The notes beneath the pieces were generated by a model that saw only the letters and a list, made by a program, of their open reading frames with translations, ran no database searches and had not been told where the DNA came from. DNA of 33,776 nucleotides from an uncultured Faecalicoccus sp. (GTDB lineage: Bacteria > Bacillota_I > Bacilli_A > Erysipelotrichales > Erysipelotrichaceae): the NCBI RefSeq assembly GCF_944327125.1, contig NZ_CALVGO010000013.1, positions 1 to 33,776 on the forward strand. The letters run 5' to 3'. Shown here in pieces: positions 8,165-30,776 of this stretch. The stretch's first letter is position 1; each line of letters opens with the position of its first letter. The translations under genes were made by a program, and so were the position numbers.

Positions 8165-8836
8165 ATGGATCAGAATTTCAATAAGGTTTTTTGGGACGCA
8201 TGTGCAAATGGTGATTTCCCTATGGTATGCGGGCAAATCAAAGCCGGTGCTGACATCAATTATCAAAACGGGGATGGAAGAACCGCTTTAATGCGTGCCA
8301 GCAAGCGAGATCGTAAAGATGTCGTTCAAGTATTGATTGATAACGGAGCCGATGTCAACCTGGCTGACAATAAAGGGAAAACCGCTCTGATGGGAGCCGC
8401 CAAAAAAGGAAATAAAACAATTTGTAAAGCTTTATTGGACGCCGGAGCCGATGTCAACGCTCGTGATGATAGAGGACGTACCGCATTGATGCGTGCTGCC
8501 TTATTAGGGCAGGACCGCTGTGTTCAGCTTCTTCTGGATGCCGGGGCTGATATCAACGCTCAGGATGAAGTGGGACGTACCGCTTTAATGGAAGCCTGCA
8601 TCGCATTTAAGCGGGATACTATTTCTTTACTTCTGGAAAGAAATGCCAATGTGAATTTATTTGATAATAACGGCTGTACCGCTTTGATGAGAGCGGCTTA
8701 CGGCGGATATCCAAGTCTGGTCGAAAAACTTTTATCCTACGGTGCGGATAAAGACATGCAGGATAAACAAGGCAATGTCGCTCTTGATTATGTTCGTGAA
8801 CATTGCCGAGCTCAGTTGGAGCCGATCTTGAAGTAG
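8165..8836 (+). CDS. ankyrin-repeat protein
   Basis: A 223-aa protein built almost entirely of ankyrin repeats. A capping repeat at about 1-35 is followed by five regular 33-residue repeats (about 36-200), each with a GRTALM-type turn and a GADVN/GADIN ending, then a C-terminal cap. There is no signal peptide or membrane segment, so it is probably cytosolic and binds a protein partner. AGGAGG (8152-8157) gives a strong start. The stop is 12 nt before the ATG of the EF-G-like gene, whose ribosome-binding site overlaps this stop region, so the two products are likely made together. The partner is unknown; the EF-G-like protein or a ribosomal factor is a natural guess. Confidence 0.93.
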   Translation: MDQNFNKVFWDACANGDFPMVCGQIKAGADINYQNGDGRTALMRASKRDRKDVVQVLIDNGADVNLADNKGKTALMGAAKKGNKTICKALLDAGADVNARDDRGRTALMRAALLGQDRCVQLLLDAGADINAQDEVGRTALMEACIAFKRDTISLLLERNANVNLFDNNGCTALMRAAYGGYPSLVEKLLSYGADKDMQDKQGNVALDYVREHCRAQLEPILK

Positions 8837-12731: not shown

Positions 12732-12765
12732 AGGATAGATCGTTTCGACACGGTCTGTCCTTTTT
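12732..12765 (+). terminator. intrinsic terminator after the ABC transporter, with a promoter -35 in its loop
   Basis: AGGATAGATCG (12732-12742) pairs with CGGTCTGTCCT (12751-12761) over 11 bp with two wobble pairs around an 8-nt loop, then a T-run. The loop contains TCGACA, which is correctly placed as the -35 of the next promoter. Confidence 0.8.
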
Positions 12766-12773
12766 AGTATAAT
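12745..12773 (+). promoter_or_regulatory. promoter for the GNAT/carbonic-anhydrase fusion gene
   Basis: The -35 TCGACA (12745-12750, five of six consensus bases) and -10 TATAAT (12768-12773) are separated by exactly 17 nt. The -35 is in the loop of the preceding terminator, and its right arm plus T-run form the spacer. The -10 lies 21 nt before the ATG. Confidence 0.8.
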
Positions 12774-12794: not shown

Positions 12795-13757
12795 ATGATT
12801 CGAGAATACCAGCCGCAAGATTTACCCGTACTTTATGACATTTATCGTTATTATGTAAATACGACCCCATATAATTTTGATTTAGAACCGATGTCTTATG
12901 GAAGCTATGAAAGGCAGATCAACGAAATCGCAAACCAGTATCCTTTCTTTGTAGCCTGCCATGAAGACAGGGTGATTGGATATGCGTATGTTCATCCTGC
13001 TTTTTCAAAGAAAGCCTATCGCTATTGCATGGAAGTTACGATCTACTTTAAAGAAGGTCCGCATTATCAGATGGCGGATCCTTTGCTTGAGACCCTGGAA
13101 ATGGCTTGTCGTGAAAAAGGATACCGATGGTTGATTTCCTGCATTACCGATTCCAATCAGGCCAGTATCGATTTTCACGCCAGGCATGATTATATATTGA
13201 TGGGCTCTCTTCCAGAGTGTGGGCAAAAGAACGATCAGTGGCACGGTGTCGTTTGGATGAACAAGGACTTAATGAAAAAGACGGTTCCATATTATCAGGC
13301 CCATTCCTCTGTGATTACTGGAGATGTCAAAATTGATCAAGATTCGTCTGTCTGGTTTGGTGCTGTGATTCGAGGCGACAGTGCTCCAGTTACGATTGGT
13401 AAAGAAACCAACATCCAGGACAATGCCGTTTTGCATGGATCAATCGGACATCCTTTGACGATCTCAGATCGTGTGACCATTGGCCATGGCGCTATTGTTC
13501 ATGGCTGCACTATAAACGAAGAAGTCTTGATTGGTATGGGAGCCATCATTATGGATGATGCCTGCATTGGACGGCACTGTATCATTGGTGCAGGGACGAT
13601 CATTCCTTCAGGAAAGGTGATCCCAGAGGGCAGTGTGGTCATTGGAAATCCGGGAAAAATTGTTCATTCGATCTGTCCTGAACAGATTCAGGCAATCCTG
13701 GATAATGCCCAAGAGTATGTGGATCTCGCTAAAGACTACCGAAAGAAGAGGACATAA
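12795..13757 (+). CDS. fusion of a GNAT acetyltransferase and a gamma-carbonic-anhydrase-like protein
   Basis: One 320-aa reading frame joins two domains. Residues 1 to about 158 are a GNAT acetyltransferase of the phosphinothricin-acetyltransferase type (MIREYQPQDLPVLYDIYRYY at the start; VIGYAYVHPA; N-x-ASIDFHARHDY near the end). Residues from about 168 are a left-handed beta-helix of the gamma-carbonic-anhydrase / YrdA group with hexapeptide repeats. Three likely metal-binding histidines are H214 (NAVLHG), H231 and H236 (TIGHGAIVHG). AGGAG precedes the start. The acetyl acceptor and whether the second domain hydrates CO2 are unknown. It is followed closely by a hydrolase gene. Confidence 0.9.
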   Translation: MIREYQPQDLPVLYDIYRYYVNTTPYNFDLEPMSYGSYERQINEIANQYPFFVACHEDRVIGYAYVHPAFSKKAYRYCMEVTIYFKEGPHYQMADPLLETLEMACREKGYRWLISCITDSNQASIDFHARHDYILMGSLPECGQKNDQWHGVVWMNKDLMKKTVPYYQAHSSVITGDVKIDQDSSVWFGAVIRGDSAPVTIGKETNIQDNAVLHGSIGHPLTISDRVTIGHGAIVHGCTINEEVLIGMGAIIMDDACIGRHCIIGAGTIIPSGKVIPEGSVVIGNPGKIVHSICPEQIQAILDNAQEYVDLAKDYRKKRT

Positions 13758-13758
13758 A

Positions 13759-14889
13759 ATGGAAACAATTTTAAACTATATTCATTTACGGAAAGACATC
13801 CCGTTTTCCTTTCGTCCCTTGAACTGGATCGATCTTCTGATTTTAAATGAACTTTCTTATGTTGATTGGAATACAATCGTCGGACAAGAGCCTATTCGCT
13901 TGCCAGAAGCCTGCAAAAAGTACTTTGAAAATCATGATGAAGATGAAATCGAACGTGTTTTCAGTTTTTCAAAAAAGATTCCCAATCTGGTTCGTGATCT
14001 AAAATCGTGTCCTCGATACCAGGATGTGCAATTGATGCATTATCAGGAAGTGTTTGATGAGGAAAAACAGATCCAGTTTGGTGCCGTGTCTTTTCTCCTT
14101 CCTGATGGGACACTCCTTATCAGTTATCGGGGTACAGACAGTTCGATATTAGGATGGAAAGAAAATATGCAGATGACCTATAAAGAAGAGCTTCCATGTC
14201 ATCTTCTTGCGAAAGATTTTCTGGAGTTTGTTTTAGATCAGGTTCCTGAAACCAGTTCTTTTTTTGGCTTGGTTAAGAAGAAAGTCTATCCCAAGATCTA
14301 TATCACAGGGCATTCCAAAGGCGGGAATCTTGCCATGTATGCTGCCTTGAAATCAAAAAAATATGCGGATGTGATCACGAAAGTCCTGGCTTTTGATGCC
14401 CCTGGTTTTCTTACATCTTTTCTTTTGAAAGAAAAAGAAAATCCGCTCTGGAACAAAATCACAAATTACAAGCCTAAAGATTCTATTATTGGATGTTTGT
14501 TGGAACATCAGGAAAAATCAGTGATCTTGGATGCGGATGAATCGGGACTTCTTCAGCACGATCCTTTTTACTGGAAAATAAGTACCGACTCCTATGTGCC
14601 TGTGGATACGCTTTCTCAAGTCAGTAAAGAAACACATGAACTGGTCGATCGCTTGCTCTTATCAAAAAACGATGAAGAGAAAAAAGACTATATTGACTTG
14701 ATTTTTTCTATTTTGGATCGTCTTGATATTGACTCGGTTTCAGGTTTTAGCGATTTGAGTTTAAAAAAAGTGATGTTAGGGGTATTGGAATTGCGAAATA
14801 TGTCAGGAGATGAACGTAAGTTTGTCTTTGATATTGTAAGTTTTTTAGGGACTCAAACGTATTCGTGGATGAAAACACAGAAAAAATAG
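13759..14889 (+). CDS. alpha/beta hydrolase, DUF2974 (Mbeg1-like) family
   Basis: A 376-aa protein of the DUF2974 / Mbeg1-like group of lipase-fold hydrolases. The nucleophile elbow is GHSKGGN with S186. The stretch LLISYRGTD near residue 118 is characteristic of the oxyanion side, and FDAPG follows the elbow. No signal peptide is seen, so it is probably cytoplasmic. It probably cleaves an ester or acyl bond; the substrate is unknown. The ATG at 13759 is chosen because AGAGGAC lies upstream and it begins one base after the fusion-gene stop. A longer in-frame ORF reaches back into that gene and is a shadow. Confidence 0.88.
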   Translation: METILNYIHLRKDIPFSFRPLNWIDLLILNELSYVDWNTIVGQEPIRLPEACKKYFENHDEDEIERVFSFSKKIPNLVRDLKSCPRYQDVQLMHYQEVFDEEKQIQFGAVSFLLPDGTLLISYRGTDSSILGWKENMQMTYKEELPCHLLAKDFLEFVLDQVPETSSFFGLVKKKVYPKIYITGHSKGGNLAMYAALKSKKYADVITKVLAFDAPGFLTSFLLKEKENPLWNKITNYKPKDSIIGCLLEHQEKSVILDADESGLLQHDPFYWKISTDSYVPVDTLSQVSKETHELVDRLLLSKNDEEKKDYIDLIFSILDRLDIDSVSGFSDLSLKKVMLGVLELRNMSGDERKFVFDIVSFLGTQTYSWMKTQKK

Positions 14890-14920
14890 AGACAGGGTTG
14901 ATTTGATCCTGTCTTTTTTT
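14890..14920 (+). terminator. intrinsic terminator after the hydrolase gene, with a promoter -35 in its loop
   Basis: AGACAGGGT (14890-14898) pairs with ATCCTGTCT (14906-14914) over 9 bp with one G-U pair, followed by seven T. TTGATT at the loop is positioned as the -35 of the next promoter. Confidence 0.85.
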
Positions 14921-30133: not shown

Positions 30134-30161
30134 AAGGAGATGCTTGCCATCTCCTTCTTTT
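30134..30161 (+). terminator. intrinsic terminator after ppdK
   Basis: AAGGAGATG (30134-30142) and CATCTCCTT (30148-30156) form a perfect 9-bp stem around CTTGC. The tail CTTTT is a short T-run. The next gene starts 12 nt later, so some readthrough is likely. Confidence 0.8.
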
Positions 30162-30173
30162 ATAGGTGTTACA

Positions 30174-30776
30174 ATGAAAGAAATCGATAAAATGAAACAA
30201 GGGCTTTTATATCATCCTTTTTCTCTGGAAGACAATACATGGTTGAAAATTCGGAAAGCCCTCAAAGATTTTAATGAAAGTGAATATTGGAAAGATCCAA
30301 AGCCTTTGGAACATTTACGAAGTTTTTTTAAACAATCGTATTCGGATCTGGCGTTGGTTCCGCCTTTTTATTGCGATCATGGAATCAATATTTCTATTGG
30401 ACGTCATTTTCAAGGAAATACGGGTATCACGATCTTGGATGAAGCGACGGTCTCAATTGGAAATGATGTATTTATGGGACCTCATGTGAGCCTCTACACA
30501 CCGATCCATCCTTTGTGGGCACCCATTCGAAATAAAGATGTGGAATTGGCCAAACCAATTACTATTGAAGATTCTGTTTGGATCGCTGGGAATGTCGTCG
30601 TCAATGCCGGCGTTACAATAGGAAAAGGAAGTGTCATTGGATCGGGAAGTGTCGTAACGAAAAGTATTCCTCCCGGCGTGTTTGCGGCGGGCAATCCTTG
30701 TAAAGTCATACGAAAAATTGAGGATGAGGATATAATATATTGGGAAAGGATGTATAAGGAATCAAATCATGAATAA
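30174..30776 (+). CDS. maltose/galactoside O-acetyltransferase family protein
   Basis: Left-handed beta-helix acetyl-CoA transferase of the Maa/LacA type, 200 aa. The N-terminal family helix (MKEIDKMKQGLLYHP) precedes hexapeptide repeats. The catalytic His is in SLYTPIHPL, and the C-terminal loop GNPCKVIRKI is typical. It probably acetylates a sugar or sugar derivative; the substrate is not known. ATG 30174 is chosen because AGGTG lies just upstream; an earlier TTG at 30144 falls inside the terminator. It overlaps the next gene by 8 nt. Confidence 0.9.
   Translation: MKEIDKMKQGLLYHPFSLEDNTWLKIRKALKDFNESEYWKDPKPLEHLRSFFKQSYSDLALVPPFYCDHGINISIGRHFQGNTGITILDEATVSIGNDVFMGPHVSLYTPIHPLWAPIRNKDVELAKPITIEDSVWIAGNVVVNAGVTIGKGSVIGSGSVVTKSIPPGVFAAGNPCKVIRKIEDEDIIYWERMYKESNHE

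What the first reader, a model, noticed from the sequence alone, without database searches (positions are those of the whole stretch)
12795..13757. Fusion of an acetyltransferase and a gamma-carbonic anhydrase
A Pat-like GNAT domain and a beta-helix with three likely zinc-binding His (H214, H231, H236) share one chain. A trimer formed by the beta-helix would display three acetyltransferase domains. A link between CO2/bicarbonate or metal state and acetylation is possible. I do not know of a characterised protein with this architecture.
Basis: partly seen in the sequence, partly recalled or inferred. Interest (0 to 1): 0.5.

Follow-up and report, generated by a model that had tools for sequence, protein, structure and literature searches.

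The report
Acetyltransferase fused to gamma-carbonic anhydrase
A gut bacterium makes one protein that joins an acetyltransferase to a carbonic-anhydrase-like zinc domain; close relatives keep the same joined gene, so it is a real and apparently undescribed two-domain protein, whose activities are untested.

Summary
Window 12795-13757 (+) is one intact 320-residue frame: a phosphinothricin/arsinothricin-type GNAT (1-158), a short linker, and a gamma-carbonic-anhydrase beta-helix (about 163-320) with H214/H231/H236. A predicted model has mean pLDDT 97.3; the halves match PDB gamma-CAs (Z about 30) and Pat/ArsN acetyltransferases (Z about 25). It is no assembly join: 10 of 272 genomes of the family, in 5 genera, carry the fusion, and it reads through in the Faecalicoccus pleomorphus DSM 20574 record. 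No other fusion was found in 395 class and 392 phylum genomes. Outside Faecalicoccus it sits directly after tsaD in the t6A operon (6 of 6), where other genera have the GNAT alone (4 genomes) or the gamma-CA alone (1): the fusion appears to have arisen in that slot. Nine of the 10 fusion genomes showed no other alpha-, beta- or gamma-CA. Both domains are under purifying selection. CA activity cannot be predicted (close homologues range from active to nearly inactive); the window's acetyl-CoA loop carries Q where the other 9 fusions have G; the Pat/ArsN1 Arg gate is replaced, so the substrate is unknown. A new variant joining known kinds. The t6A link is a testable guess.

The parts
12795..13757 (+). 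GNAT-gamma-CA fusion gene, 320 aa
   Evidence: open frame; both domains over Pfam cut-offs; model pLDDT 97.3
12795..13268 (+). Pat/ArsN1-type GNAT domain, residues 1-158
   Evidence: Pfam; phmmer to PDB 5jtf E 1.5e-19; VIA-align Z about 25
13032..13034 (+). E80, aligned with the general base Glu88 of ShPAT / Asp85 of PpArsN1
   Evidence: invariant in 10 of 10 fusions; alignment; role from PMC6465285 passages
13068..13070 (+). Q92 in the acetyl-CoA loop; Gly in the other 9 fusions
13269..13298 (+). linker, about residues 159-168
   Evidence: model secondary structure; length differs by 1-2 residues among fusions
13299..13754 (+). gamma-CA left-handed beta-helix and C-terminal helix, about residues 169-320
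13434..13436 (+). H214, predicted zinc ligand
   Evidence: 10 of 10 fusions, 49 of 49 lone gamma-CAs
13485..13487 (+). H231, predicted zinc ligand
   Evidence: 10 of 10 fusions, 49 of 49 lone gamma-CAs
13500..13502 (+). H236, predicted zinc ligand
   Evidence: 10 of 10 fusions, 49 of 49 lone gamma-CAs
12732..12761 (+). terminator-like hairpin after the ABC gene
   Evidence: -17 kcal/mol, z -4.71
12745..12773 (+). promoter-like site TCGACA-17-TATAAT ahead of the fusion
   Evidence: 11 of 12 consensus; scan found 4 sites against 6.0 in shuffles, so suggestive only
13759..14889 (+). Mbeg1-like (PF11187) hydrolase-type gene, one base after the fusion's stop; follows the fusion in 8 of 10 fusion genomes
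   Evidence: Pfam 204.4 bits; synteny
14888..14916 (+). terminator-like hairpin closing the two-gene unit

Best explanation
A genuine, conserved two-domain protein. Shown here: the single frame, the homology and predicted folds of both halves, conservation of both across five genera, and the history of the locus (a gamma-CA gene joined a GNAT gene that already lay behind tsaD in the t6A operon of Erysipelotrichaceae; in Faecalicoccus the fused gene and its Mbeg1-like neighbour lie elsewhere). Inferred: the gamma-CA beta-helices form the usual trimer with a zinc held between neighbouring subunits, each chain displaying one GNAT; since ArsN1-type GNATs build their sites across a dimer, trimers may pair into hexamers or larger arrays. 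The gamma-CA half is the main or only carbonic anhydrase of these anaerobes (CO2 to bicarbonate), while the GNAT half N-acetylates an amine other than phosphinothricin or arsinothricin; in the window's own species that half may be weakened.
For: Frame and domains; model and fold matches; 10 of 272 family genomes with the fusion; invariant active-site residues; dN well under dS in both halves in three close pairs; slot after tsaD filled by GNAT alone, gamma-CA alone or fusion; slot GNATs one group 100/99; no second gamma-CA in 10 of 10, beta-CA only in G287, alpha-CA and DabA in 0 of 10.
Against: No activity tested. Near gamma-CAs are often inactive or nearly so (PMC12648627; PMC6690855). All NCBIfam equivalog cut-offs are missed. 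The acetyl-CoA loop is atypical and the window has Q92 in place of Gly. The gamma-CA tree does not make the fusions one branch (p-AU 0.104). Four of the ten genomes are only 68-81% complete, so absence of another CA is weaker there. Other CA classes were not searched.
Confidence: 0.5

Rival explanations
1. Trimerising scaffold: the beta-helix keeps its zinc fold but serves mainly to assemble the GNAT into trimers; carbonic anhydrase activity is negligible.
For: Close gamma-CA homologues include very weak or inactive proteins, and the authors state that no pattern tells active from inactive (PMC12648627); a C. autoethanogenum gamma candidate neither acted nor complemented (PMC6690855).
Against: Zinc ligands and R193, N206, Q208 invariant in 10 of 10; the gamma-CA half is if anything more constrained than the GNAT in two of three close pairs; no other alpha/beta/gamma CA in 9 of 10 genomes.
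Confidence: 0.27
2. CA with a fading GNAT: the gamma-CA half is the working part and the GNAT is a degenerate or regulatory acetyl-CoA-sensing domain.
For: Atypical acetyl-CoA loop in the whole slot clade and Q92 in the window; Pat/ArsN1 gate residues replaced.
Against: Catalytic-type Glu80 and many GNAT residues invariant in 10 of 10; dN/dS far under 1 in the GNAT half; the model is a complete GNAT fold.
Confidence: 0.15
3. t6A helper: the fusion supplies bicarbonate to t6A synthesis.
For: Fusion arose in the tsaD slot; t6A synthesis needs much bicarbonate in the human mitochondrial system (PMC5951830); yrdA lies near tsaC in E. coli K-12.
Against: Lone gamma-CAs are near tsaD in only 2 of 48 genomes (read by eye); tsaC is not on the fusion's contig in any fusion genome with a PF01300 hit; Faecalicoccus has separated the genes.
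Confidence: 0.07
4. Assembly or contamination artefact.
For: The window genome is a draft in 87 contigs and reads were not available.
Against: Same join in ten separate assemblies of five genera, and in the named DSM 20574 record.
Confidence: 0.01

Closest known systems
CamH-type gamma-carbonic anhydrases (PDB 4MFG C. difficile, 9QEV Caloramator, 1V3W P. horikoshii, 3TIO E. coli YrdA)
   Same: Left-handed beta-helix with C-terminal helix, three zinc-type His, R193/N206/Q208; Z 29-30, rmsd about 1
   Different: Those are standalone; here about 12 N-terminal residues are replaced by a GNAT domain
Phosphinothricin/arsinothricin N-acetyltransferases (PDB 5JTF/5WPH/6M7G PpArsN1, 5T7D BAR)
   Same: Same GNAT fold, 30% identity, general-base Glu80
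   Different: Gate R75/R77 of PpArsN1 aligns with F70/K72; acetyl-CoA loop atypical; fused to a gamma-CA
CcmM of beta-carboxysomes
   Same: A gamma-CA beta-helix inside a longer multidomain chain (architecture recalled; model hit 39.2 bits)
   Different: CcmM carries small-subunit-like repeats after the CA (recalled), no GNAT; score far under its cut-off of 550

Membership tests
gamma-carbonic anhydrase | three zinc-ligand histidines in the HxnHx4H-type pattern | tested here: met
   H214, H231, H236; 10 of 10 fusions, 49 of 49 lone gamma-CAs
gamma-carbonic anhydrase | conserved Arg, Asp/Glu, Asn, Gln near the zinc (roles recalled) | tested here: met
   R193, N206, Q208 10 of 10; position 195 D in 8, E in 2
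gamma-carbonic anhydrase | left-handed beta-helix fold with C-terminal helix | tested here: met
   predicted model; Z 30.1 to 4mfg, rmsd 0.8 over 153
gamma-carbonic anhydrase | curated score for NF050158 (gamma carbonic anhydrase equivalog), 250 bits | tested here: not met
   173.8 bits for the window, 137.9-180.6 for the five other fusions scanned; a lone family gamma-CA also misses it at 157
gamma-carbonic anhydrase | homotrimer with interfacial zinc; CO2 hydration | not testable with these tools
   needs protein
Pat/ArsN1 GNAT acetyltransferase | GNAT fold and Acetyltransf_4 profile | tested here: met
   41.8 bits against 24.3; Z about 25
Pat/ArsN1 GNAT acetyltransferase | general-base acidic residue (Glu88 of ShPAT) | tested here: met
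   E80, invariant in 10 of 10 fusions
Pat/ArsN1 GNAT acetyltransferase | acetyl-CoA loop Q/R-x-x-G-x-G/A (pattern recalled) | tested here: not met
   window PHYQMA; the other 9 fusions keep the first Gly but not the Q/R
Pat/ArsN1 GNAT acetyltransferase | substrate gate Arg75/Arg77 of PpArsN1 | tested here: not met
   aligned with F70/K72, both invariant in the fusions
Pat/ArsN1 GNAT acetyltransferase | curated scores for NF040504 (210) and NF040502 (300) | tested here: not met
   100.5 and 71.7 bits
CcmM carboxysome protein | NF053794 cut-off 550 | tested here: not met
   39.2 bits

The most novel reading that the evidence does not exclude
The gamma-CA half feeds bicarbonate to t6A synthesis: the fusion arose inside the rarA-tsaE-tsaB-rimI-tsaD operon, whose pathway uses bicarbonate with a high Km in the one system measured, so one protein would couple CO2 supply (and perhaps acetyl-CoA state, through the GNAT) to a universal tRNA modification.
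Probability: 0.1. Interest if true: 0.75.

Novelty: new variant of a known kind. Interest (0 to 1): 0.42.

Why it matters
It is an apparently undescribed domain architecture, kept in gut Erysipelotrichaceae, with a readable origin: the same operon slot holds either half or both. If active, it would be the main carbonic anhydrase of these anaerobes and would give a physiological setting for the poorly understood CamH-type gamma-CAs. Its birthplace beside tsaD makes the question whether gamma-CAs serve bicarbonate-using pathways such as t6A synthesis directly testable.

Tried and rejected
Assembly artefact: rejected (ten assemblies and the DSM 20574 record). Fusion widespread in the phylum: not found; the window's own genome was the only one with a match spanning both domains among 395 class genomes (E<=1e-20) and 392 phylum genomes (E<=1e-40); in the genome-contig scan only F. 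pleomorphus (L031) spanned both among the 80 best of 186 loci; 0 of 124 plasmid records with a match covers 80% of the query. These samples are not exhaustive. Single origin of the fused gamma-CA half: neither shown nor rejected. Fission in G031: its lone gamma-CA is short at the N-end and nests among the fusions, but its GNAT falls outside the fusion group; left open. General gamma-CA/tsaD linkage: rejected as a family-wide rule; reading the position lists by eye (G031), lone gamma-CAs lie within 10 kb of tsaD in 2 of 48 genomes (G014, G025); genomes whose tsaD position was cut from the listing were left out of the 48. tsaC linkage: none; no PF01300 hit lies on the fusion's contig in the nine fusion genomes with a hit. 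The E. coli case (yrdA about 1 kb from tsaC, opposite strand) is a single example. Among the 50 rows shown in each no PDB chain covers both domains, which does not exclude one. One search read the Mbeg1-like gene one base out of frame (13760); corrected to 13759.

Full report
What is there. The window's ORF 12795-13757 (+) is one uninterrupted 320-residue frame. Pfam places Acetyltransf_4 at 2-154 and Hexapep at 237-270, both over cut-off. NCBIfam's best models are gamma carbonic anhydrase NF050158 (167-318, 173.8 bits) and ArsN1 family B acetyltransferase (2-158, 100.5 bits), both under their cut-offs of 250 and 210. An AlphaFold2 model from 81 aligned sequences has mean pLDDT 97.3 and pTM 0.81. 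VIA-align 2 gives Z 30.1 to C. difficile 4mfg (rmsd 0.8, 153 aligned) for residues 163-317 and Z about 25 to Pat-type GNATs for residues 1-165; Foldseek agrees.

Is it real beyond this assembly. In the family, 10 of 272 genomes have a match spanning both domains, in five genera (own genus 4; g61 2; g22 2; g73 1; g14 1), the nine others at 47-66% identity, none with an internal stop. The DSM 20574 record of Faecalicoccus pleomorphus encodes it in one frame; that species matches the window at 66%, and the tool puts the corresponding genome in the window's genus, so the window is probably a Faecalicoccus. Class-level (395 genomes) and phylum-level (392 genomes) searches gave no other fusion.

Conservation. 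In the alignment of 10 fusions, GNAT residues (E80, H128, W149 and others) and gamma-CA residues (R193, N206, Q208, D209, H214, H231, H236) are invariant. Position 195 is Asp in 8 and Glu in 2. Nei-Gojobori estimates for three close pairs show purifying selection on both halves: G001-G002 GNAT dN 0.166 / dS 0.821, gamma-CA 0.069 / 1.513; G204-G205 0.109 / 0.786 and 0.046 / 0.622; G024-G212 0.032 / 0.222 and 0.038 / 0.18. In the two wider pairs computed (G000-G003, G003-G002) synonymous change is saturated or nearly so.

The locus. Gene order around tsaD, found by tblastn, is rarA-tsaE-tsaB-rimI-tsaD-[slot]-(Mbeg1-like, NAD-dehydrogenase-like)-HAD-guaA, with members missing in places. These names are my own reading of the reference proteins, from recall, except Mbeg1-like. 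In the slot directly after tsaD lie the fusion in G024, G212, G204, G205, G016 and G287, a lone GNAT in G190, G031, G006 and G217, and a lone gamma-CA in G014. In Faecalicoccus the tsa operon lies elsewhere (three of the four genomes inspected), and the fusion stands between an ABC transporter gene and the Mbeg1-like gene in all four. The Mbeg1-like gene follows the fusion in 8 of 10 fusion genomes; in G016 and G287 the HAD gene follows.

Trees. The slot GNATs form one group against the other GNATs sampled (38 rows; 100/99, starred), with the ten fusions one branch inside (91/89, not starred). The gamma-CA tree (59 rows) does not make the fusions one branch: G031's lone gamma-CA groups with the G204/G205 fusions (99/90, starred) and the G016 fusion groups with lone ones of genus g2 (84/91); holding the ten together is not rejected (p-AU 0.104). 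One fusion with later replacement or fission, or more than one joining, are both open.

CA complement. At E<=1e-20 none of the 10 fusion genomes has a second gamma-CA (weaker hexapeptide hits exist). Beta-CA (PF00484) is found in 32 of 272 family genomes, among the fusion genomes only in G287. Alpha-CA (PF00194) 0 of 10; DabA of the bicarbonate uptake system (PF10070) 0 of 10. Six of the 10 genomes are at least 94% complete; G001, G205, G287 and G016 are 68-81%. Other CA classes were not searched.

Mechanism. The gamma-CA half has what the interfacial zinc site needs. Activity is not predictable: the close structure 9QEV has very low activity and its authors state that no pattern separates active from inactive members (PMC12648627, passages); a C. 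autoethanogenum gamma candidate was inactive and did not complement (PMC6690855, passages); an E. coli gamma-CA is reported as characterised (PMC7470111, search listing only), while PMC12648627 lists YrdA as inactive. The GNAT half keeps the general-base acid, but the PpArsN1 gate R75/R77, given by the partner chain of the dimer (PMC6465285, passages), aligns with F70/K72, so phosphinothricin and arsinothricin are unlikely substrates. The acetyl-CoA loop is unusual in the whole slot clade, and Gly92 is Gln in the window alone. Because ArsN1-type sites are shared across a dimer and gamma-CAs are trimers, a hexamer or larger array is a plausible inference, untested.

The novel reading. t6A synthesis uses threonine, ATP and bicarbonate; in the human mitochondrial system the Km for bicarbonate was 31 mM for t6A formation and 13 mM for the first step (PMC5951830, passages). 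A CA placed beside tsaD would suit that. In E. coli K-12 yrdA lies about 1 kb from tsaC, on the other strand. Against it: a lone gamma-CA is near tsaD in only 2 of 48 genomes (read by eye), tsaC is not linked in the fusion genomes, and Faecalicoccus has separated the genes. Searches for 'carbonic anhydrase' with 'threonylcarbamoyl' (15 papers, listing) and 'gamma carbonic anhydrase' with 't6A' (none) showed no title or abstract proposing a bacterial gamma-CA/t6A link.

In print. Searches in the open PMC library: gamma carbonic anhydrase + acetyltransferase + fusion protein + GNAT (0 papers), Faecalicoccus + carbonic anhydrase, gamma-carbonic anhydrase / domain fusion / acetyltransferase domain, two of three (20 papers, 15 listed, none on this), tsaD / acetyltransferase / gene fusion / carbonic anhydrase, three of four (39 papers, 12 listed, none on this), phosphinothricin acetyltransferase + gamma-carbonic anhydrase. 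Subscription papers and database annotations were not searched.

Local transcription. In the window a terminator-like hairpin (12732-12761; -17 kcal/mol, z -4.71) overlaps a promoter-like site (12745-12773, 11 of 12) between the ABC gene and the fusion, and a second hairpin (14888-14916) follows the Mbeg1-like gene. The promoter scan found fewer sites than shuffles (4 against a mean of 6.0), so a two-gene unit is only suggested.

Verdict. Observation confirmed; interpretation partly supported; a new variant that joins two known kinds, with activities untested.

Noticed in passing
window 8165-8836: An ORF of 223 aa made of ankyrin-type repeats (by eye from the translation), in a small-genome gut bacterium.
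   Followed up: no
window 30144-30776: A second, unrelated hexapeptide acetyltransferase-like ORF (31% to the fusion's beta-helix over 195-298), of maltose O-acetyltransferase type by eye.
   Followed up: no
window 13759-14889: Mbeg1-like (PF11187) gene begins one base after the fusion's stop and follows it in 8 of 10 fusion genomes; its function is unknown to me.
   Followed up: partly
L135 2997-3476 and L132 3420-3983 (G031): G031 has the GNAT alone in the tsaD slot and an N-terminally short lone gamma-CA on another contig that groups with the fusions: a possible fission.
   Followed up: partly
L141 4850-5323 (G014): A lone gamma-CA starts right at the end of tsaD, exactly where the GNAT or fusion starts in other genera.
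   Followed up: partly
L133 and L159 (G190 contigs 1 and 2): The rarA-tsa-GNAT-guaA block occurs twice, at 100% for the tsaD and GNAT queries, in an assembly rated 10% contaminated.
   Followed up: no
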